A stretch of DNA of 64,000 nucleotides from Ancylobacter crimeensis (GTDB taxonomy: Bacteria > Pseudomonadota > Alphaproteobacteria > Rhizobiales > Xanthobacteraceae), in the NCBI RefSeq assembly GCF_023016805.1, contig NZ_JALKCH010000010.1, positions 1 to 64,000 on the forward strand, read 5' to 3'. Of this stretch, positions 33,517 through 51,985 are shown piece after piece. Within the stretch, counting starts at the first letter, position 1. The number at the start of each line of letters is the position of its first letter. A program made the position numbers and the translations under genes. The notes below the pieces were generated by a model. It was not told the origin of the DNA. It saw only the letters and a list, made by a program, of their open reading frames with translations, and did not search any database.

Positions 33517-36180
<2,664 letters not shown>

Positions 36181-36238
36181 AGCGGCGCGGGTGCCGGCGG
36201 CGGGCCGGTGCCGTTTCCACGCACGCGCGCGTCGATGC

Positions 36239-36383
36239 CCGGCGTCATTCCCCCACACCGACCCGCTGCGCGGGCCTCCTCTCCCCCTCGGGGGGAGGGA
36301 AGGGCAGGAAGGGAGGGAAAGAAGCCATCTACCCTACGCAACCGGCTCCCTCTCCCGTCGGGGAAAGGGTTGGGGGGTGGGAG
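36239..36383. repeat. Intergenic repeat, copy A
   Basis: About 145 bases sharing its order of blocks with copy B at 36501-36638: CCGGCGTCATTCC, then GACCCGCTGCGCGGGC, CTCGGG...GAGGGA, GAAGCCATC, CAACCGGCTCCCTCTCCC and GGGTTGGGGGG. The CCCTCTCCC...GGGAAAGGG part can form a hairpin and resembles the dispersed palindromic elements common between genes in Hyphomicrobiales. It starts 58 bases after the ligA stop. Confidence 0.8.
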
Positions 36384-36392
36384 CGCAGCGGA

Positions 36393-36500
36393 GCGCTGGA
36401 GGAACTGACGCGCGACGGGGCCAAGGCGACGGCCGAGGGGCTGGGCGCCAAGGGGGGAGGTGTCGAAGCAGATGGACTACGTGATCGCCGGCGCCGAAGC
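36393..36500 (+). pseudogene. Decayed second copy of the ligA BRCT-coding 3' end
   Basis: This stretch aligns with ligA bases from about 35980 to 36091, which encode [11 protein letters not shown] through [13 protein letters not shown]. By eye the match is over 80 percent, with a 5-base deletion that shifts the frame: the first half reads A-L-E-E-L-T-R-D-G-A-K-A-T-A-E-G-L-G-A-K and the second half, in another frame, reads V-S-K-Q-M-D-Y-V-I-A-G-A-E. It has no start codon and is flanked by the two repeat copies. It is a remnant of duplication or recombination, not a working gene. Confidence 0.8.
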
Positions 36501-36638
36501 CCGGCGTCATTCCCTCGACCCGCTGCGCGGGCTACCTCTTCCCCTCGGGCAGAGGGACGAGCAGGAAGGGAAGAAGCCATCCCTCCCATGCAACCGGCTC
36601 CCTCTCCCCATCGGGAAGAGGGTTGGGGGGAAGGGGCG
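36501..36638. repeat. Intergenic repeat, copy B
   Basis: Second copy of the element at 36239-36383, roughly 85 percent alike by eye, including the hairpin-forming CCCTCTCCCC...GGGAAGAGGGTTGGGGGG. It appears to interrupt the decayed ligA copy: just after it, 36650-36680 resembles the ligA stop region and the first bases past it (36165-36194). Confidence 0.8.
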
Positions 36639-36649
36639 ACGGCCATGGG

Positions 36650-36680
36650 GAGAAGGCCGGGCTGAGGCGGCGCCGGTCCC
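36650..36680 (+). pseudogene. Possible continuation of the decayed ligA copy (stop region)
   Basis: AGAAGGCCGGGCTGAGGCGG and the bases after it align with GCAAGACCGGGTGAAGCGGC at the true end of ligA, roughly 23 of 29 positions by eye with one gap. If real, repeat copy B sits inside the duplicated segment. The stretch is short and GC-rich, so chance is possible. Confidence 0.4.
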
Positions 36681-36687
36681 GTGTCCT

Positions 36688-37485
36688 TCAGCCGCGCGCC
36701 GTCCGGGCTGTCGCGGTGGCGTTTGCGTCGAACGTGTCCGCCGGCAGTGCCGCGATCGCTGCCGCCAGCCGTTCCGCCCATGCCCGCGCGCCGGTTTCCT
36801 GTGCGATCAGGTCCTGCCGCAGCGCGATCAGCACTGCGGGAATGCCGCGGTCCTCGCCGTGGATGGGGACCGTGTAGTCCTCCGCCCGGTCGATGACGTA
36901 GGGTTCGTTCGCGGCGACCCAGGGCCCCCCGCCCAGCGCCGCGATCAGCGCCTCGCCATAGGCGGCGTCGCGGGCATAGAGAACTCCGGCGTGCCACGGG
37001 CGGGCGACGCCGCGGAACACCGGCGTGAAGGAATGCACCGAGAGGATGCGGGTCGGCCGGTCGGCCGCGCGGCGCGTGTCGAGATGGCGCGCGATGGCGG
37101 CGTGGTAGGGCGCAAACATCACCCGCGCGCGGCGATCGCGCTCCTGCGGGTCGAGGCCGACATTGCCCGGAATGTCGGTGTCTTCGGAGCGGATGGGAAT
37201 GCTGCTCGGTGCCTCGAGCGGGCGGTTGAGGTCGATCAGCAGGCGGGAGAAGCCGGACAGGAAGGCCGGCGCGTCGATGAGCGCGCTCAGATGCCGGGTG
37301 ACGCTCGCGGCGCCGATGTCCCAGGCGATGTGGCGGCCAAGCTCGCTCTCCGGCAGGCCGAGGCTGTCATAGGCGGCGGGGATGTGGCGGGAGGCGTGCT
37401 CGCAGGTCAGCACGAAGGGCGAGGCGCCTTCCGCATTGAGACAGGTCACGGCGTCCGGTCCGTCGGAGAAGGGGTGCGGGTCCAT
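36688..37485 (-). CDS. N-formylglutamate amidohydrolase family protein
   Basis: A 265-residue zinc hydrolase of the N-formylglutamate amidohydrolase (HutG-like) family. Visible motifs are L-T-C-E-H-A-S-R-H-I-P (about residues 27-37, with His/Glu metal ligands), L-I-D-L-N-R-P (about 84-90), R-I-L-S-V-H-S-F-T-P-V-F (about 146-157) and H-A-G-V-L-Y-A-R-D. No other histidine-degradation genes are present, so a different N-acyl-glutamate or amide substrate is likely. Its start overlaps the stop of the glutamine-synthetase-like gene by one base (TGATG). It is the last gene of a three-gene minus-strand operon. Confidence 0.82.
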   Translation of the reverse strand: MDPHPFSDGPDAVTCLNAEGASPFVLTCEHASRHIPAAYDSLGLPESELGRHIAWDIGAASVTRHLSALIDAPAFLSGFSRLLIDLNRPLEAPSSIPIRSEDTDIPGNVGLDPQERDRRARVMFAPYHAAIARHLDTRRAADRPTRILSVHSFTPVFRGVARPWHAGVLYARDAAYGEALIAALGGGPWVAANEPYVIDRAEDYTVPIHGEDRGIPAVLIALRQDLIAQETGARAWAERLAAAIAALPADTFDANATATARTARG

Positions 37486-38807
37486 CAATAAAGGTCCCGA
37501 TAGAGCGCGCAGACGTCCTCCGGGCTTTTCCCGGCGAGGATGGCGAGCTCTTGCCGGCGCACGGCCGCATAGGTCTCGACGAAGAGCGGGTGGAACCAGC
37601 TTCGAACCGTTTCATCCGCCTCGAAGACGGCGAGCGCCTCCTCCAGAGAGCCGGGCAGGCGGGCGAGGCCGAGCCGGGCGCGCTCGCTCTCCTCCAGCAG
37701 CGCCGGATCGCCGGAGAAGATGGGCGGCGGCGGCAGCTTCGCCTTCAGCCCCTCCAGTCCCGCGCGCACCAGTGCGGCGAGGGCGAGATACGGGTTGGCG
37801 GTGGCATCGGCCGCCCGGTATTCGACATTGAACTGCCGGGCAGGATCCTTGCCCGCGAGCCGCACCAGCGGACAGATGCGCAGGCTCGCCTCGCGGTCGC
37901 GATCGCCGAGCCAGGTCCAGGCGGCGCTCCAGCCATGGGGCTGCAGCCGGTAATAGGAGGGCAGGCTTGCCGCGGTGAGCACGGTGATCGCCCGCATGTG
38001 CCGCAGGATTCCGGCGAGGAAGGAGGCATTGATCGCCGAAAGACCGCCGGGCGCGGAGGGATCGTAGCCGACGGGCGCACCGGTATCGTCCACCAGCGAG
38101 ACATGGATGTGCACGCCGTTGCCGACCCCGGTCGGGCTGGTCTTGGGGGCGAAGCTGGCGTGCCAGCCGCGATTGGCGATGATCTCGCGCACGATCTCGC
38201 GGATCGCGACCGCCCGGTCGGCCGCGGCGAGCGCGTGGGTGGGCGCGTGGGTGACCTCGTACTGATCGGCGCCATATTCGGCGAGGACCATTTCCGGCTC
38301 GACGCCCGCCTCGGTCAGCGCCGCGAGGATCTGCCCGCCGAGCGGATCGGCCCGGCGCAGCGCGGCCGGCGAGAAGGCGTGGGCGGGCGGCAGGCCGGCG
38401 CCGACGATCTGGAACTCCTGCTCGAAGGTGGCGAGCAGCCGCAGGCCGGTCGCGGCTTCGAGGGCGGCGAGCGCATCGGCGAGGATGGTGCGCGAGCAGC
38501 AGCACCAGGGCGCGCCGTCGAGTTCGACGAGAGTGCCCATCGCAAGGCCGAGCGGGGTCGGCGCGCCGGTCGCGGCGGTGCGGTAGACGGCGTCGAGATC
38601 GGGCCGGATGCGCAGATCGCCGGCCGAGCCGAAGGGGTTGGGATCGGCGATGATGTTGAAGGGCGTCAGCGCCACATTGGCCGGCACCCAGCCGACGCCG
38701 GCGGCGGCATAGCTGCCGAGCCGCTTGTGCGGTACCGGGCGGCCGCGGGTGATGGCGGCGAAATCGGTGGTGACGATGGAGGTGAGCTCGATCGGGGCGT
38801 GGCTCAT
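37485..38807 (-). CDS. Glutamine synthetase family ligase (type III/PuuA-like)
   Basis: A 440-residue member of the glutamine synthetase superfamily. Catalytic-domain motifs are visible: F-E-Q-E-F-Q (Glu metal ligands, about residue 137), A-E-Y-G-A-D-Q-Y-E-V (about 187), G-N-G-V-H-I-H-V-S-L (about 243-252) and E-Y-R-A-A-D-A-T-A-N-P-Y-L. It lacks the P-F-D-P-relatedness of a housekeeping GlnA and the adenylylation loop tyrosine is not recognisable. Relatives ligate glutamate to amines such as putrescine. Context with an N-formylglutamate amidohydrolase and a cysteine hydrolase suggests catabolism through gamma-glutamylated or N-acyl intermediates; the substrate is inferred only. Confidence 0.8.
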   Translation of the reverse strand: MSHAPIELTSIVTTDFAAITRGRPVPHKRLGSYAAAGVGWVPANVALTPFNIIADPNPFGSAGDLRIRPDLDAVYRTAATGAPTPLGLAMGTLVELDGAPWCCCSRTILADALAALEAATGLRLLATFEQEFQIVGAGLPPAHAFSPAALRRADPLGGQILAALTEAGVEPEMVLAEYGADQYEVTHAPTHALAAADRAVAIREIVREIIANRGWHASFAPKTSPTGVGNGVHIHVSLVDDTGAPVGYDPSAPGGLSAINASFLAGILRHMRAITVLTAASLPSYYRLQPHGWSAAWTWLGDRDREASLRICPLVRLAGKDPARQFNVEYRAADATANPYLALAALVRAGLEGLKAKLPPPPIFSGDPALLEESERARLGLARLPGSLEEALAVFEADETVRSWFHPLFVETYAAVRRQELAILAGKSPEDVCALYRDLY

Positions 38808-39448
38808 CGCGCGTCGCCGATCGCTGCGATGCGGGCAACGGTGCTCGCGGTGTCGGCGAGGTGGCAATAGCCGCCGAACGCGCGGAACGCGGTGTCCTGC
38901 CGCTCGGGCGTGATGGTCGCGCAGGCATCGGTGACGCAGGTGACGAGGAAGCCGCGATCGGCACCGTCGCGCACCGCCATGTCGACGCACTGGTCGGTCA
39001 GCACCCCGCACACGATGAGCGAGCGGACGCCGAGATTGCGCAGCAGATAATCGAGATTGGTGGAGTTGAAGACCCCGGAGGAGGTTTTCGGCAGCAGGAT
39101 CTCGTCCCCTTTCGGCCCGAGATTGTCCGGCGGCAACCCTTCCGGCAGGTCGGGCGGCACATGGATGGGTGTGAGCTTGTGGTCGAGCGAGCGGTCGCGG
39201 CCGTCCTTCGTCAGCGACTGGATGATGGTGTGCAGCACCTCCACCCCATTTGCCCGCGCCGCCGCCAGCAGGCGCTCGGTGTTCGGGATCGTCGTCTCGC
39301 GCAGGGTGCGATGGAAATAATGGTCCGGCCCACGCTCCGGGTGGTGCGGATCGAGGCCCGGCTCGATCCAGATGCGCTGGAGATCGACCAGCAGCAGCGC
39401 GGTCTCGCCAGCCCGGAAGGGCTGGTCGCGGCGGACGGTGTCGGACAT
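38804..39448 (-). CDS. Isochorismatase-like cysteine hydrolase
   Basis: A 214-residue cysteine hydrolase of the isochorismatase superfamily. The triad fits Asp in A-L-L-L-V-D-L-Q (about residue 21), Lys in L-P-K-T-S-S-G-V-F (about 118) and Cys in V-C-G-V-L-T-D-Q-C-V (about 147-151). Members hydrolyse amides such as nicotinamide, N-carbamoyl compounds or biuret. It is the promoter-proximal gene of the operon and overlaps the next gene by four bases (ATGA). ATG at 39448 is preferred to an upstream start that adds 15 residues. A LysR gene diverges from it 165 bases away. Confidence 0.82.
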   Translation of the reverse strand: MSDTVRRDQPFRAGETALLLVDLQRIWIEPGLDPHHPERGPDHYFHRTLRETTIPNTERLLAAARANGVEVLHTIIQSLTKDGRDRSLDHKLTPIHVPPDLPEGLPPDNLGPKGDEILLPKTSSGVFNSTNLDYLLRNLGVRSLIVCGVLTDQCVDMAVRDGADRGFLVTCVTDACATITPERQDTAFRAFGGYCHLADTASTVARIAAIGDAR

Positions 39449-39562
39449 GGTTCGGGAACCTGCATTGACGGAACGGAGCGGCGAAACGGGCACTCGTCCA
39501 AATCACCTGACGCAGAAGAAGGAGTATTATGCCGGCGCCCGTCAACAGCAAGGCGCATTGAC

Positions 39563-39579
39563 GCGGCGCTTTGCGCCGC
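39563..39579. promoter_or_regulatory. Inverted repeat in the divergent LysR spacer
   Basis: GCGGCG, CTTTG, CGCCGC forms a 6-bp inverted repeat 34 bases before the LysR start and about 115 bases before the cysteine hydrolase start. LysR regulators typically bind such sites in divergent spacers. The palindrome is short, so this is a candidate operator only. Confidence 0.35.
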
Positions 39580-39613
39580 CCTAGCGTGCGCGGGTGGCGG
39601 TCAGGGGGTGAGG

Positions 39614-40597
39614 GTGGATATACGGGTCTATTCGAGCTTTCTCGTCACCGCCGAGATGTTGAACGTCACGGCGGCGGCGCGCCGGCTCAACCTCACCCAG
39701 TCGGCGCTCTCGCGCCAGCTCATGACGCTGGAGGCGAGCCTCGGGGTCAAGCTGTTCGAGAAGGCCGGCCGCACCATCCGCCTCACCGCCGAGGGCGAGA
39801 CGCTGGCGGGGAAGGTTCAGCACATCATCTCCGCCGAACGCGATCTGCGCAGCACCGCCAGCGGGCTGAGCCGCGGCGAGGCCGGGCTGCTGCGGATCGG
39901 CGCGTGCTCGCAACTGATCGAGCGCTATTTTCCCGCCTTCCTCCGCGGCTGGCGCGAGGCCAATCCCGGCGTCGACATCCGTGTGGAGGATGGCGGAGGA
40001 GCCGAACTCGCCGAGAAGCTGAAAGGCGGACAGGTCCATTGCACGGTGAGCGCGGCGCCTTCGCACCCCATCGAGGCGTTCGAGATGCGCCGCATCGGCA
40101 GTCTCGGCTTTCTCGCCGTGGGTACAGCGGCGTTTCTGGGCGCTCCGCGACCGATCGAGGCGGCGGATCTCGTGGACAAGCCGCTGATGCTTCTCAACGG
40201 CAAGCACGCCTCGCGCGAAATGTTCGACGCAGTGATGCGGGTGAGCGGGGCCCGGCCGGAGGTGATCGCCGAGAGCCATTCGCCCCACACCCTGTTCGCC
40301 CTGGCAGAGGGCGGGAACGGCATCGCGGTGGTGCCCTCCTCGGTGCGGATCGCCGCGGGCGCGCTGGTGCGGCGGCCGATCACCCTCAAGGGCGAGACCA
40401 TCACCTTCGACATCTGCGCGATGTGGAACGCGCATCTGCCGCCGCCGGCCTATGCCCAGCGCTTCATCGAGGATCTCGCCGCCCATATCGCGGCCGAGGA
40501 GCAGCAGGAGGTGCTGACCCTCTCCAGCTTCCGGCGCGGCCTTCACGCCGTCCAGAGTGACGATCCATTCCGATCCCGCATGGGTCGCGGCGAATAG
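39614..40597 (+). CDS. LysR-family transcriptional regulator
   Basis: A 327-residue LysR protein with the N-terminal winged helix-turn-helix (residues 1-60; L-N-V-T-A-A-A-R-R-L-N-L-T-Q-S-A-L-S-R-Q-L) and a substrate-binding effector domain (about 90-290; L-L-R-I-G-A-C-S-Q-L, A-V-V-P-S-S-V). It is divergent from the cysteine hydrolase operon, the usual arrangement for the target of a LysR activator, and also lies 87 bases before the ABC transporter genes in the same direction. GTG at 39614 follows AGGGGGTGAGG; another GTG six bases upstream is equally possible. It could control one or both neighbouring operons. Confidence 0.9.
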   Translation: MDIRVYSSFLVTAEMLNVTAAARRLNLTQSALSRQLMTLEASLGVKLFEKAGRTIRLTAEGETLAGKVQHIISAERDLRSTASGLSRGEAGLLRIGACSQLIERYFPAFLRGWREANPGVDIRVEDGGGAELAEKLKGGQVHCTVSAAPSHPIEAFEMRRIGSLGFLAVGTAAFLGAPRPIEAADLVDKPLMLLNGKHASREMFDAVMRVSGARPEVIAESHSPHTLFALAEGGNGIAVVPSSVRIAAGALVRRPITLKGETITFDICAMWNAHLPPPAYAQRFIEDLAAHIAAEEQQEVLTLSSFRRGLHAVQSDDPFRSRMGRGE

Positions 40598-40684
40598 AAT
40601 TCATTGGACGTATCGTTTCGGCTGTCCTTAGCTGCCCTCCGGGCATGTCGTTGCCGGCATGGCATTGGGGGAACTGGGGATCAG

Positions 40685-41674
40685 ATGGTGGCGAAAGGCA
40701 GGTTGTTCGGGCCCGGCGCGTTCAACCAGGAGCGGATCGTGCTTGCCACCGCGATCGCCATCTTCGCGGTCGCCTCCTTCGCCCTGCCGGGTTTCTTCAC
40801 GGCGGAAAACATCGTCACCATCGTGCGTTCGGTCTCGGTGCTCGGCATCCTGTCGCTCGGCATGGCGGTGGTGATCATCGGTCGCGGCATCGACCTGTCG
40901 ATGGTCGCGATCATGGCGATGTCGGTAGCGGCCTATCTGCAACTCCTGGCCAACGGCATGAGCGACGGCGCCGCACTGGCGCTGGTGCTCGCCGGCGTCA
41001 TCGGCATCGGCCTGCTGAACGGCTTCCTCGTCGCCTATGCCGAGGTGCCGGCGTTGTTCGTGACGCTGGCCTCCGCCTCCTTCATCTTCGGCTATGTGCG
41101 CTCGCAGGTGATCGGGGCGGATGCGGTGCCGGTGCCGCGCGCCCATTGGGTCGCCTCGCTGGGCTCGGTGCAGTTCCTCGACATACCCATCGAGGTCTTC
41201 ATCTTCGCCGCGCTCGCGCTGGCGATGTTCCTGTTCCTGCGCTTCACCAAATGGGGGCGCTTCGTCTATTACGCCGGCGACAACCCGGTTGCCGCCCGGA
41301 ATGCCGGCATGCCGGCGCGGCCCATGCTGGTGTTGCGCTATGTGATCTCGGCGATGTTCGCCTTCATTGCCGGCATACTGACGGCGGCCAGCCTGCATTC
41401 GATGAACACCCGCGTCGTCAACTCGACGCTGCTCTACGACATCGTGCTGGTGGCGGTGATCGGCGGCATCGGCCTGTCGGGGGGCAAGGGCGGGGTGCGC
41501 AACGTGCTGATCGGCGCGGCGCTGACCGGCGTGCTGCTGAATGCCATGACCATCATCGACATTCCGCTGATCTATCAGAATCTCATCAAGTCGACGATCC
41601 TGCTGGCCGCCATCATCTTCGACGGGCTCATCAACCCGCGCGACGAGCAGACGGCGCAGCAGGGCGACATCTGA
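40685..41674 (+). CDS. CUT2-type sugar ABC transporter permease (first permease)
   Basis: A 329-residue RbsC-like membrane protein (branched-chain/ribose permease family, BPD_transp_2) with eight to ten hydrophobic helices. The family motifs G-M-A-V-V-I-I-G-R-G-I-D-L-S (about residues 59-72) and G-D-N-P-V-A-A-R-N-A-G-M (about 199-210), the cytoplasmic loop that contacts the ATPase, are present, as is G-G-I-G-L-S-G-G-K-G-G. It would form part of a heterodimeric channel with the fused permease encoded by the gene at 42936. ATG at 40685 is chosen because upstream in-frame sequence is Cys/Arg-rich and not family-like. Confidence 0.9.
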   Translation: MVAKGRLFGPGAFNQERIVLATAIAIFAVASFALPGFFTAENIVTIVRSVSVLGILSLGMAVVIIGRGIDLSMVAIMAMSVAAYLQLLANGMSDGAALALVLAGVIGIGLLNGFLVAYAEVPALFVTLASASFIFGYVRSQVIGADAVPVPRAHWVASLGSVQFLDIPIEVFIFAALALAMFLFLRFTKWGRFVYYAGDNPVAARNAGMPARPMLVLRYVISAMFAFIAGILTAASLHSMNTRVVNSTLLYDIVLVAVIGGIGLSGGKGGVRNVLIGAALTGVLLNAMTIIDIPLIYQNLIKSTILLAAIIFDGLINPRDEQTAQQGDI

Positions 41675-41757
41675 CGCCGCCGGGCTCCGGGGGAGGGGCC
41701 CACGGTGACGGGACGACACGCGAAACACGAGACAGGGCTAGCTAGGGGATCGCAACG

Positions 41758-42783
41758 ATGAAGAAGTTTCTGTCCATCCTCGCCGCTGGGGCGGCGATCA
41801 TGGCTGGCGCCTATAGTGCGCCGGCGCTGGCGGCCGACGATCCGAGCCCGGCGGTCTATGCCTCCGCGCTCAAGGGCAAGCGGGTGATGCTGGTGCCGAT
41901 GGCGATGGGCTTCGACCTCGCCCAGGGCTGGGCGGCGATCCTCAAGCGCGAGATCGACGCGTTCGGGGGCACCTTCGAGACCCGCGACCCGAACTGGAGC
42001 GTGGAAGCCGGCGCGCAGGCGATCACCGAGGCGATCTCGTCCGACAACAAGCCGGACGTGCTGATCGTGATGTCGCCGGACCTCAACTCCTACGCCAAGC
42101 TGATGAAGAAGGCGCAGTCGCAGGGGATCTATGTGATCCTCATCGACAACCCCGCCAACTTCAAGGCCGATGCCTATGTCGGCAGCGACTGGACCGAGCT
42201 CGGCCGGCTCGAGGCCAAGGCGGTGATCGCTGGCTGCAAGGCGGCTTCGCCGAAGAAGATCGGCCTCGTGCAGGGCGATCAGGTGAACGCCACCAGCCTT
42301 TACCAGTATGCCGGCATCATGGAGGTGCTGGGCAAGGAGAAGGACGTCGAGGTCGTCGCCAAGCCGGATTCCAACTGGGACGCCACCACCTCGCGCAACG
42401 TGACCGCGACCATGCTGCAGCAGCACCCGGACATTTGCGGCATCATCGACTTCTGGGACGGCGACGCCAGCGGCGCGGCGGCGGCGATCCGCGATGCCGG
42501 GCTCCAGGACAAGGTGTTCCTCGTCACCACCGGCGGCGGCGAGAAGAAGGCCGATTGCGACAAGATCGCCGACGGCACCTATGGCGCCGTGGTCACCACC
42601 GAGCTGGCTCAGGAGAGCCACAACATGGTGACCATGATCAAATACCTGCTGCAGAGCGGCCAGCCGCCCGGAACCGCCTCGCCCTTCATCTACACGCTCA
42701 TGAAGCCGACGACGAAGGAGAACATGCGGGCCGATAGCTGCTGGGATCTCGATGCGCTGAAGGCGGAAGCCGGCATCAAGTAA
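41758..42783 (+). CDS. Periplasmic sugar-type substrate-binding protein
   Basis: A 341-residue binding protein of the Peripla_BP_4 (ribose/galactose-binding-like) type. A clear signal peptide ends at A-L-A-A-D (cleavage near residue 25). The two-lobe pattern shows V-M-L-V-P-M-A-M-G-F-D (about 40), A-I-S-S-D-N-K-P-D-V-L-I-V, V-G-S-D-W-T-E-L-G-R (about 141) and I-G-L-V-Q-G-D. Three cysteines (about residues 161, 227, 261) and a C-terminal Cys may form disulfides. It should deliver its ligand to the two permeases next to it. The ligand cannot be told from sequence; the neighbouring enzymes do not define a known sugar pathway. Confidence 0.88.
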   Translation: MKKFLSILAAGAAIMAGAYSAPALAADDPSPAVYASALKGKRVMLVPMAMGFDLAQGWAAILKREIDAFGGTFETRDPNWSVEAGAQAITEAISSDNKPDVLIVMSPDLNSYAKLMKKAQSQGIYVILIDNPANFKADAYVGSDWTELGRLEAKAVIAGCKAASPKKIGLVQGDQVNATSLYQYAGIMEVLGKEKDVEVVAKPDSNWDATTSRNVTATMLQQHPDICGIIDFWDGDASGAAAAIRDAGLQDKVFLVTTGGGEKKADCDKIADGTYGAVVTTELAQESHNMVTMIKYLLQSGQPPGTASPFIYTLMKPTTKENMRADSCWDLDALKAEAGIK

Positions 42784-42904
42784 GCTTGGCGCCTTCCGGC
42801 CTGACGGCGGCGGCGTCCCGCCGCCGTCCGCCGCCGTCCCTTGCATCCCCGCTGCTGCGAACACCCGGCCGAACGGCCGGGCGTTTCGCGCGCCTGCTGT
42901 CACC

Positions 42905-42934
42905 GAGCCCGAACCCGCCGAGCCCGAACCCGCC
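42905..42934. repeat. Tandem 15-bp repeat before the fused permease gene
   Basis: GAGCCCGAACCCGCC occurs twice head to tail directly upstream of the ATG at 42936, where a Shine-Dalgarno sequence would be expected; none is visible. The translation start of the fusion gene is therefore less certain than its reading frame. The rest of the 152-base spacer is featureless. Confidence 0.7.
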
Positions 42935-42935
42935 G

Positions 42936-45059
42936 ATGAGCTTTCGCGAACGCCTGCAGTCCTGGCGCTACAATCTCGTTCCCGATCACCTGATCGGCGA
43001 GATCCTGTCCAAGCGCTGGACCGACAACGCCATTCCCTTCCTGGCGCTGATCCTGGTGGTCGCCGGCTTCGGCTCGGTGATACCGGGCTTCTTCAAGCCG
43101 GCCTCGCTGCAGGATTCCACCCGCCAGCTCGGCGAGTTCTCGATCGTGGTCACCGGGCTCACCGTGGTCATGCTCGGCGGCGGCATCGATCTCTCGGTCG
43201 GCTCCATCTTCGCGCTCGCCACCTTCTCCTCGGTCGCGGCCTTCTTCATCTTCGACCTGCCGGTCTGGGTGGCCTTTCTCGCCGCGCTGGCGACGGGCTG
43301 CGTGTTCGGCGCGATCAACGGCTATCTGGTCGGCTTCCTGCGGCTGCGCGCCTTCCTGACCACGCTGGTCACCTTCATCATCGGCCGCGCGATCTTCGAC
43401 ATCCTGATCGTGAATTACGGGGCGGCGGTGCAGACCTCGACCGCCTCCTCCGACACCTGGGACTTCATCGGCGACGGCACGCTGGGCGGGCTCTCCATCC
43501 CCGTCATCGGCGCGGCGGTGATCGCGATCTTCACCCACATCGCGCTGACCCGCTCGCGCATCGGCTGGCACATCCTCGCGGTGGGCGGCTCGCGCCGCTC
43601 GGCCCACAATGCCGGCATCAAGGTGAAGCGCACCATCTTCCTCACCTATGTGTTCTCGGGGCTCTGCGCGTCCACCGCCGGTTTCCTCATCGCCTGCCGG
43701 CTGTCCGGCGCGGGGCCGGGCACCGGGCTCAACATGGAGATTCTCGCCCTCACGGCGGCCGTGGTCGGCGGCAATTCGCTGGGCGGAGGGCGCGGCTCGG
43801 TCGCCAAGGGGCTGATGGGCGCGGTCATCGTGCTGGTGATGAACAACGGGCTGATCCGGCTCGGCTACGGCACCGGCACCAACCAGATGGTCATCGGCAT
43901 CATGCTGGCCATCGCGGTGACGATCGACATCCGCTGGCTGAAGAACCGGCACAAGGTGCTGAACGAGGTCTATGTCGCGCCGATCTATCTGAAGATGGGC
44001 GCGGCGCAGTCGGCCCTGCCGGGGTCGGGCACGCCTTTCGCACTCAACAACGCGATCTCGCAGACGGACTATATCGGCCTCGGCGCGCTCGAAGGTCCAG
44101 AGGACGTCATCCTCGACCGCGACGACCATCTCTATTGCGGCACGCGGCACGGCGAGATCGTGCGCTTCTTCGCGCCCGATTATCGCCGCTCGGAGGTGTT
44201 CGCCCATGTCGGCGGCTTTCCGCTCGGCCTCGCCTTCGATCGCGACGGGAACCTCCTGAGCTGCGTCGGGGCGATGGGGCTCTATTCGATCACCCCCGAC
44301 CGGGTGGTAACGCGGCTCTCCGCCGAAACGCGCCGCTCGCTGACCTCGGTGCAGGACGACGCCCGGCTGCGCGACCCGAACGACCTCGACATCGCCCCCG
44401 ACGGAAAAGTCTATTTCACCGATTCCACCAAGCGGTTCGATGCCCATGACTGGGCGCTCGATTCCATCGAGAACCGCGCCACCGGCCGCCTGCTGGTCTA
44501 CGATCCGAAGACCGGCGCCACCCGCACTTTGCTCGACGGCTATCATTACCTCAACGGCGTCTGCATGGCCCATGACGGGCGCAGCCTGTTCGTCGCCGAG
44601 AGCTGGGCCTGCCGCGTGCACCGCTACTGGCTGGAAGGCCCGAAGGCCGGTACCGCGGAATGCGTGATCCGCGACATGCCGGGCTACCCCGACAACATCA
44701 ACCGCGCCTCCGACGGCACCTACTGGATGGCGTGGCTCGGCATGCGCACGCCGAGTTTCGACCTGTCGCTGCGCCATCCCGGCTTCCGCAAGCGCATGAC
44801 ACGCCGCCTGCCGCAGGACGACTGGCTGTTCCCCAACATCAATACCGGCGGCGTGGTGAAGTTCGACGAGAGCGGGCGCGTCCTCGGCACGCTGGGCGAC
44901 CTCTCCGGCCGCTCGCACCCGATGGTAACCTCGATGCGTGAGCACAAGGGCTGGCTGTTCATCGGCGGCATCCTCAACAACCGCATCGGCCGGCTCAAGC
45001 TGGACGGGGCCGATCCCCGCTGGACCGGGCCGACCTCCTATTGGGGGGAGCGGGCATGA
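42936..45059 (+). CDS. Fusion of CUT2 permease and strictosidine-synthase-like beta-propeller
   Basis: A 707-residue protein in one uninterrupted frame. Residues about 1-345 are an RbsC-like permease (V-T-G-L-T-V-V-M-L-G-G-G-I-D-L-S-V-G-S, about 70-88; A-V-G-G-S-R-R-S-A-H-N-A-G-I for the ATPase contact). Residues about 365-705 are a soluble six-bladed propeller of the SMP-30/strictosidine-synthase-like class: G-P-E-D-V-I-L-D-R-D-D-H-L-Y-C-G, D-P-N-D-L-D-I-A-P-D-G, Y-L-N-G-V-C, and M-P-G-Y-P-D-N-I-N. Such domains are metal-dependent lactonases or esterases. Permease C-termini in this family are usually cytoplasmic, so the enzyme domain would act on newly imported ligand. Start codon uncertain. 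Its stop overlaps the next gene by four bases. Confidence 0.85.
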   Translation: MSFRERLQSWRYNLVPDHLIGEILSKRWTDNAIPFLALILVVAGFGSVIPGFFKPASLQDSTRQLGEFSIVVTGLTVVMLGGGIDLSVGSIFALATFSSVAAFFIFDLPVWVAFLAALATGCVFGAINGYLVGFLRLRAFLTTLVTFIIGRAIFDILIVNYGAAVQTSTASSDTWDFIGDGTLGGLSIPVIGAAVIAIFTHIALTRSRIGWHILAVGGSRRSAHNAGIKVKRTIFLTYVFSGLCASTAGFLIACRLSGAGPGTGLNMEILALTAAVVGGNSLGGGRGSVAKGLMGAVIVLVMNNGLIRLGYGTGTNQMVIGIMLAIAVTIDIRWLKNRHKVLNEVYVAPIYLKMGAAQSALPGSGTPFALNNAISQTDYIGLGALEGPEDVILDRDDHLYCGTRHGEIVRFFAPDYRRSEVFAHVGGFPLGLAFDRDGNLLSCVGAMGLYSITPDRVVTRLSAETRRSLTSVQDDARLRDPNDLDIAPDGKVYFTDSTKRFDAHDWALDSIENRATGRLLVYDPKTGATRTLLDGYHYLNGVCMAHDGRSLFVAESWACRVHRYWLEGPKAGTAECVIRDMPGYPDNINRASDGTYWMAWLGMRTPSFDLSLRHPGFRKRMTRRLPQDDWLFPNINTGGVVKFDESGRVLGTLGDLSGRSHPMVTSMREHKGWLFIGGILNNRIGRLKLDGADPRWTGPTSYWGERA

Positions 45060-46087
45060 CCATTCTCGATCCGCTGCTCGACCTGTTCCGCGGCAAGGCC
45101 GTCACCGTGCCGCCGCTCGACGGCGCCTTCCGCCCCAACCGGCTGCTGGACGAGGCTTCGGCGCTCACGAGCATCTCCGAACCGACCGACCTCGCGGTGA
45201 AGGACGGGCGCACGCTCGTCGCTTCCGGCAATGCGGTCCACGCGCTGAAGGCCGATGGCAGCACGGAGGTTGTGGAGAGCTTCACGGCTCCGGTCACCGC
45301 GCTCGCGGTCTCGCCCACGGGCGCGCTCGCCGTGGCGCTCGACAGCGGCCGTCTGTTCGTGGACGGCACCGAGGTGAAGCTGCCGGACGGCATCAACTGC
45401 CTGATCGCTCTGTCCTATGCCGCCAACGGCATCCTGCTGATCGCGAACGGCTCATTCCTGCACCGCCCCACCGACTGGCGGCGCGACATGATGGAGAAGA
45501 ACGCGGCGGGCTCGGTCTGGGCGCTCCACCCGGATGGCACGACGCGCCGTCTCGCCGACGGGCTGGCGTGGCCGTCGGGCGTGCTGGCCGATGGCGCGGG
45601 GGTCGTCGTCGCCGAGGCGTGGCAGCGGCGTCTCGTCCGCATCGCGGACGGCCGGTCGCAGGTGCTGGTCTCCAACATGCCGGGCTATCCGGCCCGGATG
45701 TCGCGGGCGGGAGAAGGGGTGCTGCTCGCCGTCTTCGCGCCGGTCAACCGGCTCATCGAATTCGTGCTGCAGGAAGACGATTACCGGCGGGCGATGATGG
45801 CGGAGATCCCGCCGGACTACTGGATCGCCCCGGCCCTTGCCTCGGGAAATTCCTTCCTCGAACCGTTGCAGTGCGGCGGCATCAAGACCATGGGCATCCA
45901 CAAACCGTGGTCGCCGAGCCGGTCCTATGGCCTGCTGGTCAGGCTTGATCGCGGCTTCCAGCCGGTCGCGAGCTATCACAGCCGGGCGGATGGGCGTCGC
46001 CATGGCGTCGTCGCGGCGGTGACGGCCGGTGGAGCCATTCATGTGGCGTGCGCGGGCGGCGGGGAAATCCTCGCCCTCGACGCCTGA
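45056..46087 (+). CDS. Free-standing SMP-30/strictosidine-synthase-like protein
   Basis: A 343-residue propeller protein related to the C-terminal half of the preceding fusion protein: it also has D-L-A-V-K-D-G, A-W-P-S-G-V-L-A-D, A-E-A-W-Q-R-R-L-V-R-I and N-M-P-G-Y-P-A-R-M-S. In the fusion the last motif reads G-Y-P-D-N-I, so here the D-N pair that usually binds the metal is replaced by A-R, which may mean lost or altered catalysis. No signal peptide is seen, so it is probably cytoplasmic. It begins within the ATGA overlap with the fusion gene and ends 13 bases before the ATPase gene. Confidence 0.75.
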   Translation: MTILDPLLDLFRGKAVTVPPLDGAFRPNRLLDEASALTSISEPTDLAVKDGRTLVASGNAVHALKADGSTEVVESFTAPVTALAVSPTGALAVALDSGRLFVDGTEVKLPDGINCLIALSYAANGILLIANGSFLHRPTDWRRDMMEKNAAGSVWALHPDGTTRRLADGLAWPSGVLADGAGVVVAEAWQRRLVRIADGRSQVLVSNMPGYPARMSRAGEGVLLAVFAPVNRLIEFVLQEDDYRRAMMAEIPPDYWIAPALASGNSFLEPLQCGGIKTMGIHKPWSPSRSYGLLVRLDRGFQPVASYHSRADGRRHGVVAAVTAGGAIHVACAGGGEILALDA

Positions 46088-46100
46088 GCGGGAGCAGGAC

Positions 46101-47621
46101 ATGGAACCCGCAGAAGCGAGGGCGACGGAGCCTGTCATCCGCCTGGAGAACGTCTCGAAGCTCTATCGCGGCGTGCCGGCGGTGAAGAATGTCAGCTTCG
46201 AGCTGCGCAGGGGCGAGATCCACGCCCTGCTCGGCGAGAACGGGGCCGGCAAGTCGACCCTCACCAAGATCATTGCCGGGGTGGTGGAGGCCTCCTCGGG
46301 CCGGATGATCCACAACGGGGTCGAGGCGGCCTATGCCAACCCCAATGCGGCGCTGCAGGCCGGCATCGCCATGGTGTTCCAGGAGACCTCGCTGGTCCCC
46401 TCGATGACGGTGGCGCAAAATCTCTATCTCGGCTCGGAGAAGTTCCTGAACCGGCTGCGCGGCATCTACATCTCGGCGCAGCAGTTCCTGCAGTCGCTCA
46501 ATTTCTCGGTCGATCCCACCGCCATGGTGGAGACGCTGGGCGCGGCCAAGAAGCAGATGGTCGAGATCGCCCGCGCGGTCCACCACAATGCCGAGGTCAT
46601 CATCTTCGACGAGCCGACCGCGACGCTGACGCCGGAGGAAAAGCGCCATTTCTTCGCGCTGGTGCGACGGCTGAAGGCGCGCGGGGTTTCCATCGTCTTC
46701 ATCAGCCACGCGCTGGAAGAGGCGTTGCTGCTCTCCGACCGCATCACCATCCTGCGCGACGGCGAGCTGGTCGCCACCGGGGAGACCGCGAGCTTCGACC
46801 GCGAGAAGATCATCGCCGCGATGGTGGGGCGCACGCTGTCGGCCGAACTCTACCGCCAGCGCGACGAGGCGAAGATCCGCAAGGCCGGCCGCAAGGTGCT
46901 CTCGGTGCAGGACATCTCGATGGGCGCGGCGGTGCGCAACAATTCCTTCTCGGTCTTCGAGGGGCAGATCACCGGCGTGTTCGGGCTGATCGGCTCGGGG
47001 CGGACGGAGACCTTCAAGATCGTGTCCGGCATCTACAAGCGCGACTTCCTGCGCGGCGGCAGCATCGAGCTCGACGACCGCCCGGTGCGCTATGTGGTGC
47101 CGCGCGAGGCGGTGAAGGACGGCATCGTCTATGTGACCGAGGACCGCAAGTCCGAGGGCTTCTTCGAGACCATGTCGATCGCCGAGAACCTGTTCGGCGG
47201 CCTCCTGGCTGCCGACCGGGAGCAGCACCGCATCATCAGCCACGCCGAGATGCACGAACTCTCGCGCGAATGGTCGAAGCAGCTGAACATCCGCGCCATC
47301 AACGACAATGCGCGGGTGGTCGAGCTTTCGGGCGGCAACCAGCAGAAGGTCGTGATCGGCAAGGGGCTGGTGCAGAAGCCGCGCATCGTCATCTTCGACG
47401 AGCCGACGCGCGGTGTCGATGTCGGCGCCATCGCGGAGATTCACCAGATCATCAACCGGCTGGCCGACGAAGGCCTCGCCGTGGTGGTGATCTCCTCCTA
47501 CCTGCCTGAGATCCTCAATCTCTCGGACCGCATCCTCGTCTGCCGGCAGGGCCGGATCGTCGAGGAGTTCTCGCCCACCGAGGCGACCGAGGGAAAGATC
47601 ATGTACGCGGCCGTGCACTGA
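46101..47621 (+). CDS. CUT2-type sugar ABC transporter ATP-binding protein
   Basis: A 506-residue protein with two ABC domains, the form typical of the ribose/xylose (CUT2) transporters. The first domain has Walker A G-E-N-G-A-G-K-S-T (about residues 45-53) and Walker B I-I-F-D-E-P-T (about 168). The second has the degenerate G-L-I-G-S-G-R-T-E in place of Walker A and intact L-S-G-G-N-Q-Q-K and I-V-I-F-D-E-P-T-R-G-V-D. This asymmetry is normal in the family. It should drive the two permeases encoded upstream. ATG at 46101 follows GGGAGCAGGAC; an upstream start overlapping the propeller gene is less likely. Confidence 0.93.
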   Translation: MEPAEARATEPVIRLENVSKLYRGVPAVKNVSFELRRGEIHALLGENGAGKSTLTKIIAGVVEASSGRMIHNGVEAAYANPNAALQAGIAMVFQETSLVPSMTVAQNLYLGSEKFLNRLRGIYISAQQFLQSLNFSVDPTAMVETLGAAKKQMVEIARAVHHNAEVIIFDEPTATLTPEEKRHFFALVRRLKARGVSIVFISHALEEALLLSDRITILRDGELVATGETASFDREKIIAAMVGRTLSAELYRQRDEAKIRKAGRKVLSVQDISMGAAVRNNSFSVFEGQITGVFGLIGSGRTETFKIVSGIYKRDFLRGGSIELDDRPVRYVVPREAVKDGIVYVTEDRKSEGFFETMSIAENLFGGLLAADREQHRIISHAEMHELSREWSKQLNIRAINDNARVVELSGGNQQKVVIGKGLVQKPRIVIFDEPTRGVDVGAIAEIHQIINRLADEGLAVVVISSYLPEILNLSDRILVCRQGRIVEEFSPTEATEGKIMYAAVH

Positions 47622-47642
47622 GCCGCGGCGGAAAGCACAACC

Positions 47643-48494
47643 ATGAACAGCAAGGCCGTCTGGACCTACTACAAGGGCATTTGGCACGAGGGCGACGTGC
47701 GCATCCTCGGCGCCAGCTCGCACGCCACCTGGCTCGGTTCGCTCGTCTTCGACGGAGCCCGCCATTTCGCCGGCGTCACGCCCGACCTCGCCTTGCACTG
47801 CGCGCGGGTGAACGACTCCGCGCGGGCACTGGGGCTGGAGCCGACGCTGACCGGCGGCGAGATCGAGGCGATCACCCGCGACGGGCTGGCGAAATTCGCG
47901 CCCGGCACCGACGTCTATATCCGCCCGATGTACTGGGCCGAGGAAAGCGATGCCGGCGTGGTGCCTCCGCTCGCCGCCTCCACCGACTTCGCCCTGTGCC
48001 TCGAGGAGATGCCGATGGTGGAGCCCACCGGGTTCACCATCACCACCACCCGCTTCTGCCGGCCGACGCTGCAGGTGATGCCGGTCAATGCCAAGGCGGC
48101 CTGCCTCTATCCCAACAATGCGCGGATGATGCGCGAGGCCAAGGCCAAGGGCTTCCACAACGCGCTGGTGACCGACGTGCTCGGCAATGTTGCCGAGCTC
48201 GCCACCGCCAATGTGTTCATGGCCCGCGGCGGCGAGGTCTTCACACCCGTGCCGAACGGTACCTTCCTGAACGGGATCACCCGCCAGCGGGTGATCGGGC
48301 TGTTGCGGGAAGCCGGGGTCGGCGTGCACGAGGTTTCGCTCACCGTGGAGGATTTCCGCGGCGCCGACGAGATCTTCTCGACCGGCAACATCTCGAAAGT
48401 CGTGCCGGTGATCGGCTTCGACGACAAGGCCCTGCCATTCGGGCCGATGGCGCGGAAGGCGCGCGCCCTCTATCTCGACTGGGCACGGGGCTGA
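47643..48494 (+). CDS. Class IV aminotransferase (branched-chain/D-amino acid type)
   Basis: A 283-residue fold-type IV PLP enzyme. It shows H-x-T-W-L-G-S-L-V-F-D-G (about residues 27-38), the R-P-M-Y-W pattern, the PLP lysine in P-V-N-A-K-A-A-C-L-Y-P (about 144), E-L-A-T-A-N-V-F (about 183-190) and G-I-T-R-Q-R-V-I (about 209-216). Annotated relatives are usually called branched-chain aminotransferases, but it is shorter than housekeeping IlvE and sits in a transport/catabolic operon, so a more specialised amino donor or keto acid substrate is likely. Eleven bases upstream is a purine-rich ribosome site. Confidence 0.85.
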   Translation: MNSKAVWTYYKGIWHEGDVRILGASSHATWLGSLVFDGARHFAGVTPDLALHCARVNDSARALGLEPTLTGGEIEAITRDGLAKFAPGTDVYIRPMYWAEESDAGVVPPLAASTDFALCLEEMPMVEPTGFTITTTRFCRPTLQVMPVNAKAACLYPNNARMMREAKAKGFHNALVTDVLGNVAELATANVFMARGGEVFTPVPNGTFLNGITRQRVIGLLREAGVGVHEVSLTVEDFRGADEIFSTGNISKVVPVIGFDDKALPFGPMARKARALYLDWARG

Positions 48495-48516
48495 CGCAAA
48501 GGTCAGGGAGGAAACA

Positions 48517-48924
48517 ATGGCGACCGTAAAGCTGTTCACCGATGCCGAGGCCGAAGCTTCTCCCGCCGTGAAGGCGGTGTTCGACGACATCCGGGCCACC
48601 CGCAAGAACGACTTCATCAACAATTTCTGGCGCGCTCTGGCCAATGACCCGGCGACGCTGAAGCGGGTGTGGGAGGGGCTCAAGGCCGTGATGGCGGTCG
48701 AGGGTTCGATCGACCCCGTCACCCGCGAGATGATCTATATCGCCGTTTCCACCGCCAATAGCTGCCAGTACTGTGTCCAGTCCCACACCGCGGCGGCGCG
48801 TGCCCGGGGCATGACCGACGCGCAGCATGGCGAGCTGCTCTCCATCATCGGCCTCGCCGCCCAGACCAATCACCTCGCCATCGCGATGCAGGTGCCGCCG
48901 GACCCGGAATTCGAGGTCCGTTGA
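48517..48924 (+). CDS. Carboxymuconolactone decarboxylase/AhpD-like protein
   Basis: A 135-residue all-helical protein of the CMD/AhpD family. The redox motif C-Q-Y-C-V-Q-S-H (about residues 87-94) with the C-x-x-C...H pattern points to the peroxidase-associated AhpD-like branch rather than to true gamma-carboxymuconolactone decarboxylase. AGGGAGGAA precedes the ATG. It may protect against peroxides or act on a reactive intermediate of the pathway served by the neighbouring transporter; both are inference. Its stop overlaps a possible TTG start of the next gene. Confidence 0.85.
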   Translation: MATVKLFTDAEAEASPAVKAVFDDIRATRKNDFINNFWRALANDPATLKRVWEGLKAVMAVEGSIDPVTREMIYIAVSTANSCQYCVQSHTAAARARGMTDAQHGELLSIIGLAAQTNHLAIAMQVPPDPEFEVR

Positions 48925-48941
48925 CAGGTGGGAGCCGTGCC

Positions 48942-49913
48942 GTGAAAGCAATGGTGGTGCGCGCGCCGGGCGGTCCGGCCGCGATGGAGTGGATCGATGT
49001 CGCCCCTGTCGCGCCGGGCCCCGGCGAGGTGCGGGTCCGACATCGGGCGGTCGGCGTCAATTTCATCGACGTCTACTACCGGAGCGGCCTCTATTCCTGG
49101 CCGGGCTCCAGCCTCATTCCCGGCGCCGAGGCGGTGGGCGAGGTAACCGAGCTCGGGCCGGACGTCGAGGGGCTGCGTGTCGGCGAGCGCGTGGCCTATG
49201 TCACTCGTTTCGGCGCCTATTGCGAGGAGCGGGTGCTGCCGGCCCGCCGGCTAGTGAAGGTGCCGGACGGCCTCGCCGACGAAACCGTGGCCAGCGTGCT
49301 GTTGAAGGGGCTGACGGCCCAGTATCTCGTGAATTCGTCCTACAGGGTCGAACGCGGCGACACCGTTCTGGTGCACGCCGCCGCCGGTGGGGTGGGGCTG
49401 ATCCTCGGGCAGTGGCTCGCCGCACTGGGCGCCACCGCCATCGGCACGGCGGGCGGCCCCGAGAAGGTCGCGGTCGCCCGCGCCCATGGCTATGCCCACG
49501 TCGTCGATTATCGCAACGAGGATTTCGTCGCGGCGGTGGACGCCCTGACCGGCGGACAGGGCTGCGCGGCGGTTTATGACAGCGTCGGCGCGGACACCTG
49601 GCGGGGCTCGCTGAAATGTTTGCGCCGCCGCGGCATGTTCGTGAATTTCGGCCAGTCCTCCGGGATGATCGCCGAGTTCCGCCTGTCGGACCTTGCCGCG
49701 CATGGCTCGCTTTCCGCCAACCGGCCGGTGCTGTTCGATTATGTAGAGGAGCGTACCGAGCTGGTGGAGCGGGCGCAGGACCTGTTCGCCCGTCTGCTGG
49801 ACGGCACCATCAGGGTGCGTGCGCCCGAGACCCACGCCCTGACGGATGCCGCCATGGCCCATGAGCGGCTGGAAGGGCGCCTGACGACGGGGTCGGTGGT
49901 GCTTACGGTCTGA
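48942..49913 (+). CDS. NADPH:quinone reductase-like zinc-independent MDR oxidoreductase
   Basis: A 323-residue medium-chain dehydrogenase/reductase of the zeta-crystallin/QOR type. It has the GroES-like start, G-V-N-F-I-D-V-Y-Y-R-S-G (about residues 36-47, the QOR signature), no structural zinc cysteine cluster, and the NADPH-binding A-A-A-G-G-V-G (about 147-153). It should reduce quinones or enoyl-type double bonds with NADPH. Start options are GTG at 48942 (GGGAG 8 bases upstream, used here), TTG at 48921 and ATG at 48951. It is the last gene of the transporter-catabolic run. Confidence 0.88.
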   Translation: MKAMVVRAPGGPAAMEWIDVAPVAPGPGEVRVRHRAVGVNFIDVYYRSGLYSWPGSSLIPGAEAVGEVTELGPDVEGLRVGERVAYVTRFGAYCEERVLPARRLVKVPDGLADETVASVLLKGLTAQYLVNSSYRVERGDTVLVHAAAGGVGLILGQWLAALGATAIGTAGGPEKVAVARAHGYAHVVDYRNEDFVAAVDALTGGQGCAAVYDSVGADTWRGSLKCLRRRGMFVNFGQSSGMIAEFRLSDLAAHGSLSANRPVLFDYVEERTELVERAQDLFARLLDGTIRVRAPETHALTDAAMAHERLEGRLTTGSVVLTV

Positions 49914-49980
49914 CGGAAACCGGCAAACGTCTTCCGGGCGTTTCGCCGCAGTTTTTCCGGCATGACGGGCTCCTTCCGTT

Positions 49981-50400
49981 ATGGCACATCCTGTCGCCAT
50001 GAACCGGTTGCGCAGGGCTCTCACGCGTACCCTCGGCGGCAATGTCGTCGCCGTGGTGCTGGCCTATGCGCTTCTGTTCCAGCTTCTGGTCGATGCCCCG
50101 CTTCTGAAGGCGGATGTCGGCGACCCGGCGCATCTCATTCTTTGCTCCGGCCTTGGCGATGGCGGCAGCCCCCAGCCGGACGCTCCGTCTTCCGACCTCA
50201 CGCATAAATGCTGCCTCACGCTGTGCCGACTGGCCGGTGGGGTCGCGACGGCGCCAGCTCCCGACGGCGGGCTCGTTCCGTTGGTCCCGCGGCGCATCGT
50301 CATCGCAACGCTCGCCTTCGCGCCGCCCGTCCCGGCGACCGGCCGGGCGGCGACCATCGCGCTCGCGCGCGGACCTCCCCGAGCCCTCCTGAACGGCTGA
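49981..50400 (+). CDS. DUF2946-like small membrane-anchored protein
   Basis: A 139-residue protein with a basic N-terminus and one hydrophobic segment (about residues 20-42). It has a Cys/His pattern like DUF2946 proteins, H-L-I-L-C followed 20 residues later by H-K-C-C-L-T-L-C, and an Ala/Pro-rich C-terminal half. Members of this family often sit beside copper- or TonB-related genes and may bind metal; function is unknown. A second ATG at 49999 is possible. The PepSY-TM gene follows 138 bases later in the same direction, supporting a metal-related pair. Confidence 0.6.
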   Translation: MAHPVAMNRLRRALTRTLGGNVVAVVLAYALLFQLLVDAPLLKADVGDPAHLILCSGLGDGGSPQPDAPSSDLTHKCCLTLCRLAGGVATAPAPDGGLVPLVPRRIVIATLAFAPPVPATGRAATIALARGPPRALLNG

Positions 50401-50446
50401 GCCGCCGCCCGCTGCGAACGGGCCGCCCACCTTCCGGAGATCCTTC

Positions 50447-50542
50447 ATGACCAACGACCGCCTTGGCGGGCCGGGCATCGTGTGCCCGCGTGCCTACACC
50501 TTCTCTCGTCCCCTCACCGGATATCAGGGGAGGGGACGATGA
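50447..50542 (+). CDS. Possible 31-residue small protein or leader peptide
   Basis: An ATG with GGAGA 6 bases upstream opens a 31-codon frame that ends exactly in an ATGA overlap with the PepSY-TM gene start. The peptide (M-T-N-D-R-L-G-G-P to Q-G-R-G-R) has one Cys and no membrane segment or known motif. The coupling geometry is what one expects for a leader peptide that sets translation of the next gene, but the whole could be chance in a 138-base spacer. Confidence 0.3.
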   Translation: MTNDRLGGPGIVCPRAYTFSRPLTGYQGRGR

Positions 50543-51942: not shown

Positions 51943-51985
51943 CGCCAGCCGCGGCTGGATTTTCTTCCCGGCTTCGGCGAGCCCC

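What the first reader, a model, noticed from the sequence alone, without database searches (positions are those of the whole stretch)
36239..36680. Decayed duplication of the ligA 3' end, caught between two copies of an intergenic repeat
Just past ligA, 36393-36500 is a degenerate, frameshifted copy of the BRCT-coding part of the same gene (about 35980-36091). It lies between two similar palindrome-bearing repeats, and 36650-36680 looks like the ligA stop region. The simplest reading is that an ancestral duplication or recombination left a second ligA tail, which decayed after repeat copy B inserted in it. This shows how dispersed palindromic elements and gene ends reshuffle in this lineage.
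Basis: seen in the sequence. Interest (0 to 1): 0.65.

Follow-up and report, generated by a model that had tools for sequence, protein, structure and literature searches.

The report
Decayed tandem copy of ligA's end
A short piece at the end of a DNA-repair gene, together with the repeat that follows it, was copied once beside itself and the copy is now decaying; this is an ordinary genome scar, and its one notable feature is that the copying joint lies at the edge of a repeat type already linked to unstable DNA.

Summary
36386-36501 is a frameshifted copy of ligA's BRCT-coding part (35973-36093; score 129, shuffles average 21, 0 of 300 as high); no second copy was found in 29 relatives. The interpretation needs correcting: repeats A and B are not independent insertions, because they share a linker with no other full-length match in this genome or 29 relatives. 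Simplest history: one tandem duplication of about 413 bp (BRCT end, stop, spacer, repeat A), then a 146-bp deletion in the second copy between 7-bp CGATGCC repeats. The copy decays at all codon positions; ligA stays intact. The repeat's second half is a degenerate form of a published triplex motif linked to instability, and the duplication joint lies at its edge. The 'stop-like' segment is weak. The scar borders a 15.8-kb segment absent from this place in 23 of 23 relatives tested. A tree could not show that the copy came from this ligA, and triplex sites showed no significant excess of local duplications. Ordinary in kind; modest interest.

The parts
33571..36180 (+). ligA, NAD-dependent DNA ligase, 869 aa, intact, with the C-terminal BRCT domain
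   Evidence: ORF; Pfam adenylation, OB, zinc-finger, HHH and BRCT (residues 793-864, E 1.8e-14)
35973..36385 (+). X1: source unit of the inferred ~413-bp tandem duplication (BRCT end, stop, spacer, repeat A); the left end could lie as far out as ~35964 (by eye)
   Evidence: 413-bp spacing of copies; shared linker
36087..36093 (+). CGATGCC, left partner of the inferred deletion (X1 coordinates)
36233..36239 (+). CGATGCC, right partner of the inferred deletion (X1 coordinates)
36240..36384 (+). Repeat A: head hairpin (GACCCGCTGCGCGGG...), unique linker, degenerate triplex motif (~36348-36384)
   Evidence: motif compared by eye with the consensus in PMC4666352
36386..36501 (+). BRCT': decayed copy of ligA 35973-36093 with a net 5-bp deletion
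36502..36636 (+). Repeat B: duplicate of A with the same linker; degenerate triplex motif ~36600-36636
36653..36703 (+). Possible remnant of the ligA stop and downstream flank; overlaps the last codons of the next gene; not proven
   Evidence: 36653-36681 against 36169-36196, 24 of 29 columns; with cheaper gaps 36648-36703 against 36175-36233; 4-40 of 2000 controls as good; not recovered by the whole-genome search
36688..37488 (-). N-formylglutamate amidohydrolase gene, convergent to ligA; C-terminus 17-19 residues longer than three ~60%-identical relatives, shorter than a fourth at 46-48%
   Evidence: Pfam FGase E 7e-41
36181..51960 (.). Segment of ~15.8 kb present here but not between ligA and its usual downstream genes in relatives; right end approximate (by eye)
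   Evidence: Sequence downstream of ligA in 23 of 23 relatives tested maps to 52043 onward; Pfam content

Best explanation
A short local tandem duplication and its decay. Shown: ligA's BRCT end is followed by repeat A, a frameshifted BRCT copy and repeat B; A and B carry the same unique linker; the BRCT copy has private changes at all codon positions, ligA only two, both at third positions. Inferred: about 413 bp (35973-36385) were duplicated in tandem in this lineage; the second copy then lost 146 bp between two CGATGCC repeats, which removed the rest of the BRCT coding sequence, the stop and the spacer and put the BRCT copy directly against repeat B. Inferred, less certain: the duplication was a template switch at a replication fork stalled at the triplex-forming hairpin of the repeat, because the joint lies within about 8 bp (by eye) of that motif's 3' edge. 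The fragment has no inferred function; ligA keeps its own complete end.
For: Copies at 413-bp spacing. Score 129 against a shuffle maximum of 35. The linker of A matches, in the own genome, only A, B (78%, E 7e-8) and a 22-bp piece (E 0.07); 5 of 29 relatives give matches of only 17-27 bp; the 5 other head-bearing elements have other linkers. Deletion partners share 7 bp; 0.33% of 200,000 random pairs reach 7. Polarised against 24 relatives: 16 substitutions on the BRCT' side at codon positions 4/5/7 plus 5 gap columns; on the ligA side 2, both third position, and 1 undecided. Two replacement-site states shared by ligA and BRCT' are absent from 24 of 24 (35992) and 23 of 24 (36025) relatives. 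No second copy found in 29 relatives (the same search missed ligA itself in G012, G014 and G001). E. coli precedent: 22 of 90 novel junctions lie at REP sequences and all 40 sequenced amplification junctions had microhomology (PMC3161906, passages); loci with triplex motifs are more rearranged than controls (PMC4666352, section 19).
Against: By raw identity BRCT' is no nearer to its own ligA (100 of 128) than to relative L005 (101 of 128). In the unconstrained tree of 121 columns BRCT' falls with L014/L015 (support 42), not with its own ligA; own-sister is not separated from five other constrained placements (AU p 0.30-0.58, with fewer replicates than the program advises). If the stop-like segment is genuine, one duplication plus one deletion does not explain why it lies after repeat B. 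Triplex sites show no significant excess of straddling duplications (4 of 83 against 23 of 787, p 0.32). The second copy now reads CGAAGCC, one base off the inferred CGATGCC. The joint itself is blurred by decay.
Confidence: 0.65

Rival explanations
1. Three-tail array: the locus was once tail-repeat-tail-repeat-tail, made by unequal exchange. The second tail lost its stop part; the third lost its BRCT and is the stop-like piece at 36653-36703 that runs into the next gene.
For: Stop-like segment colinear and just past repeat B; 36635-36650 matches BRCT' 36425-36440 at 14 of 16 bases; the neighbour gene's C-terminus, 17-19 residues longer than three relatives, lies partly over it; a tandem triplication of a 206-bp unit with this repeat exists in another species (L264).
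Against: The stop-like match is weak (4-40 of 2000 controls as good) and was not among 40 matches of a whole-genome search; the BRCT'-like piece is weak too (30-50 of 2000 against BRCT', 80-365 of 2000 against ligA); a fourth relative's protein is longer than this one (L146); more events are needed.
Confidence: 0.15
2. One reading: ligA's tail was duplicated without a repeat, then repeat copies landed independently at the joint and inside the second tail.
For: Order BRCT', repeat, stop-like segment; the repeat family is dispersed.
Against: A and B share a unique linker and the same leading CCCGGCGTCATTCCC; the 5 other head-bearing copies do not share the linker.
Confidence: 0.07
3. BRCT' is a piece of another species' ligA left by recombination, perhaps with the arrival of the adjacent 15.8-kb segment.
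For: Raw identity and tree cannot exclude it; the scar is at the border of a segment not found here in relatives.
Against: Two replacement-site states shared with the local ligA and nearly absent elsewhere; the duplicate also includes the local repeat with its linker; no relative is close to BRCT' (best 101 of 128).
Confidence: 0.06
4. Composite mobile unit: two repeats carry a captured gene fragment as cargo.
For: Repeat, gene fragment, repeat layout.
Against: No further copy found in the genome or in 29 relatives; the source lies right beside it; no Y1 (REP-associated) transposase found in 30 of 30 genomes.
Confidence: 0.02

Closest known systems
G/C-rich intrastrand triplex motif (TM) of bacteria, Holder et al. 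2015, PMC4666352 (abstract, passages, sections 15 and 19 seen)
   Same: Other copies in this genome fit CCCTCTCCC-N3-6-GGGAGAGGG-N3-GGGTGAGGG exactly (7 exact matches; 27 of 30 genus genomes have at least one). A and B have the same order of parts. Published association with variable loci.
   Different: A and B are degenerate, above all in the third block, and neither matches the exact pattern. The paper reports missing regions and intergenic changes; its main text does not contain the word 'duplication'.
REP-associated duplication junctions in E. coli (PMC3161906, passages; earlier REP join-point work recalled, not read)
   Same: Short palindromic intergenic repeats at junctions with microhomology.
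   Different: Those joints come from selected amplifications in experiments; here it is 413 bp, old and decayed, and no RAYT transposase was found.
Partial gene duplication with pseudogene decay (general; recalled)
   Same: Truncated, frameshifted second copy beside an intact gene.
   Different: Nothing beyond the repeat at the joint.

Membership tests
Partial tandem gene duplication / pseudogene | Significant similarity to the adjacent gene in direct orientation | tested here: met
Partial tandem gene duplication / pseudogene | Loss of coding constraint in the copy | tested here: met
   Frameshift and private changes at all codon positions, 4/5/7
Partial tandem gene duplication / pseudogene | Copy descends from the local gene | tested here: inconclusive
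   Shared states favour it; raw identity and tree do not decide
G/C-rich triplex motif (TM) | Exact three-block sequence CCCTCTCCC/GGGAGAGGG/GGGTGAGGG | tested here: not met
   A and B are not among the 7 exact matches of this genome; they are degenerate relatives, the type itself is present
G/C-rich triplex motif (TM) | Folds as an intrastrand triplex | not testable with these tools
   Needs CD or NMR; published for E. coli sequences
G/C-rich triplex motif (TM) | Surrounding loci rearranged more than controls | tested here: inconclusive
   Only straddling local duplications tested: 4 of 83 against 23 of 787, p 0.32
REP element mobilised by a RAYT transposase | Y1_Tnp (PF01797) transposase in the genome | tested here: not met
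   0 of 30 genus genomes at E<=0.001; control genomes ring in 5 of 14

The most novel reading that the evidence does not exclude
Triplex-forming repeats act as template-switch points that copy the ends of neighbouring genes and open those sites to insertion of foreign segments: here a ligA-end duplication joined at the motif's edge and a 15.8-kb insertion at the same place.
Probability: 0.12. Interest if true: 0.5.

Novelty: new member of a known kind. Interest (0 to 1): 0.22.

Why it matters
It is a well-marked scar that suggests the order of events (duplication, microhomology deletion, decay) at a triplex-type repeat. On its own it is ordinary. It would matter if a survey showed that such motifs repeatedly seed gene-end duplications; the small survey made here did not show that.

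Tried and rejected
Independent insertion of B: rejected on the shared linker. RAYT-driven REP element: no PF01797 protein in 30 of 30 genomes. Rfam: only RNase P in the window at gathering thresholds. Plasmid collection: 2 weak matches covering 20 and 8% of the query. Literature (listings only): 20 of 10,412, 15 of 452, 12 of 353, 15 of 31, 1 of 1 and 10 of 127 papers were listed; none of the titles describes this locus, and the one listing that joins triplex motif, tandem duplication and bacteria is PMC7015867 (listing and start of abstract only). led to PMC4666352 and to PMC3161906, of which parts were read. Right border of the 15.8-kb segment: the ligA tail and repeats A and B gave no match near 51.9-52.1 kb by BLAST within the window. 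Spacer search in the own genome: only short matches. Tree of BRCT': undecided. Generalisation survey: 80 stretches of 8-9 kb around listed exact sites and near-matches (one search printed only part of its matches), 72 of them from the own genome, G017, G042 and G008; duplicates made mostly of the repeat itself were masked and the control points, 250 bp apart, are not independent. 84 sites including the window, 5 straddled, of which the window's was known beforehand and is left out of the test. L264 is a real triplication; L285 is two copies of another dispersed repeat by my reading; L252 (68% identity) and L271 (42 bp) were not examined further.

Full report
What is there. ligA (33571-36180) encodes an intact 869-residue NAD-dependent DNA ligase whose BRCT domain spans residues 793-864. 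Past its stop lie a short spacer, repeat A (36240-36384), a BRCT-like fragment (36386-36501), repeat B (36502-36636), and a convergent N-formylglutamate amidohydrolase gene ending at 36688. The BRCT-like fragment matches ligA 35973-36048 and 36051-36093 at 84% each, with a net 5-bp deletion between the two blocks that breaks the reading frame.

Is it more than chance. The local score is 129; dinucleotide shuffles average 21 with a maximum of 35 (0 of 300 as high), and 0 of 2000 segments of the window reach the fragment's score. In the own genome the fragment finds only itself and ligA at E<=0.001 (ligA E 2.1e-25; 29 of 90 candidates scored), and no second copy was found in 29 genus relatives; the other weak matches are 23-42 bp. 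That search is not exhaustive: it gave no match in G012 and G014 and only a 42-bp match away from ligA in G001, so it missed ligA itself there.

The repeats. The head hairpin occurs 7 times in the genome within 3 mismatches, A and B included; the second hairpin occurs 14 times within 3 mismatches, B included but not A. The linker between the two hairpins of A matches, in this genome, only itself, B (78%, E 7e-8) and a 22-bp piece (E 0.07); 5 of 29 relatives give matches of 17-27 bp. The 5 other head-bearing elements of the genome carry other linkers. So A and B are best read as one element copied once, not two insertions. Both also begin with the same CCCGGCGTCATTCCC.

History. Copies of the BRCT part lie 413 bp apart. 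If X1 = 35973-36385 was duplicated in tandem, the second copy should run BRCT, stop, spacer, repeat. It lacks the part that corresponds to 36094-36239; at exactly these places the first copy has CGATGCC twice (36087-36093 and 36233-36239), while the second copy now reads CGAAGCC at the junction. A shared 7 bp or more is found in 0.33% of random pairs. A deletion between these repeats is therefore the simplest cause of the BRCT'/B junction. These two events are inferred; the matching sequences are shown.

Decay and origin. Polarised by the majority of 24 relatives, BRCT' carries 16 private substitutions at codon positions 1/2/3 = 4/5/7 and 5 gap columns, whereas ligA carries 2, both at third positions, and 1 site is undecided. 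Two replacement-site states, 35992 and 36025, are shared by ligA and BRCT' and absent from 24 of 24 and 23 of 24 relatives. That favours a copy of the local gene made after the lineage split off. Against it: by raw identity BRCT' fits relative L005 (101 of 128) as well as its own ligA (100 of 128); the unconstrained tree of 121 columns places BRCT' with L014 and L015 at support 42, not with its own ligA; and constrained trees do not separate own-sister from five other placements (AU p 0.30-0.58, with fewer replicates than the program advises).

The stop-like segment. 36653-36681 matches 36169-36196 at the ligA stop in 24 of 29 columns. 1 of 300 shuffles of the stretch (0 of 300 for a narrower pair chosen after the fact) and 4 to 40 of 2000 window segments, depending on gap penalty and stretch, score as well. 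A whole-genome search with 36150-36245 listed 40 matches at E<=1 (40 of 131 candidates scored) without it. The neighbouring gene's protein is 17-19 residues longer at its C-terminus than three relatives at 59-62% identity, and that extension lies partly over this segment, but a fourth relative (L146, 46-48%) is longer still. A third, truncated tail remains possible, and I keep it as the main rival (0.15).

What the repeat is. Its second half has the order of parts of the G/C-rich intrastrand triplex motif of Holder et al. 2015 (PMC4666352; abstract, passages and sections 15 and 19 read). Exact forms occur 7 times in this genome and in 27 of 30 genus genomes, 0 to 77 per genome, none in the reversed-pattern control. 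A and B are degenerate forms that do not match exactly. The duplication joint (36385/36386, possibly up to 8 bp earlier, by eye) lies at the 3' edge of A's motif. In E. coli 22 of 90 sequenced novel junctions lie at REP sequences, for which the authors suggest secondary structure as the cause and allow for template switches (PMC3161906, passages). A stalled fork that switched template is thus the likeliest mechanism; it is inferred, not shown. No REP-type transposase was found in 30 of 30 genus genomes.

Test of generality. Among 83 other exact triplex sites in 80 stretches, 4 are straddled by direct duplicates against 23 of 787 control points (Fisher p 0.32). One, L264, is a clear tandem triplication of a 206-bp unit that contains the repeat. 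So comparable events exist, but an excess is not shown.

Setting. In 23 of 23 relatives tested (of 29; L006 lacked an anchor and five genomes had no ligA locus fetched), sequence within 1.5 kb downstream of ligA maps to 52043 onward in the window. The interval 36181 to about 51960 is therefore particular to this genome at this place. It holds an N-formylglutamate amidohydrolase, a glutamine synthetase-like gene, an isochorismatase-fold gene, ABC transporter parts with a periplasmic binding protein, an aminotransferase and a PepSY protein. The scar lies at its left border. Whether the two are causally linked is unknown.

Verdict. In kind it is ordinary.

Noticed in passing
36181-51960: About 15.8 kb between ligA and its usual downstream genes, absent there in 23 of 23 relatives tested. 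Its NFGAH has ~60% relatives in 3 of 29 genomes, on other contigs than ligA; the remaining matches are 32-49%. Its PepSY gene has only 27-32% matches in 29 relatives. No integrase or transposase among the ORFs scanned, but not every ORF was scanned.
   Followed up: partly
36691-36750: The N-formylglutamate amidohydrolase has 17-19 extra C-terminal residues compared with three relatives, reading into the scar; a fourth, more distant one is longer.
   Followed up: partly
L264:6851-7450: In another species of the genus a 206-bp unit holding the same repeat pair is repeated three times in tandem.
   Followed up: partly
L285:3807-4272: Two copies (93% over 95 bp) of a different GTCATGCCCGGG-type palindromic repeat on either side of a triplex motif.
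   Followed up: no
genus genomes: Exact triplex motifs vary from 0 to 77 per genome among 30 species of one genus.
   Followed up: no
3093-3474: Bacterial RNase P class A RNA on the minus strand.
   Followed up: no
35660-35750: ligA carries a repetitive stretch coding for [16 protein letters not shown] before the BRCT domain (seen in the translation).
   Followed up: no
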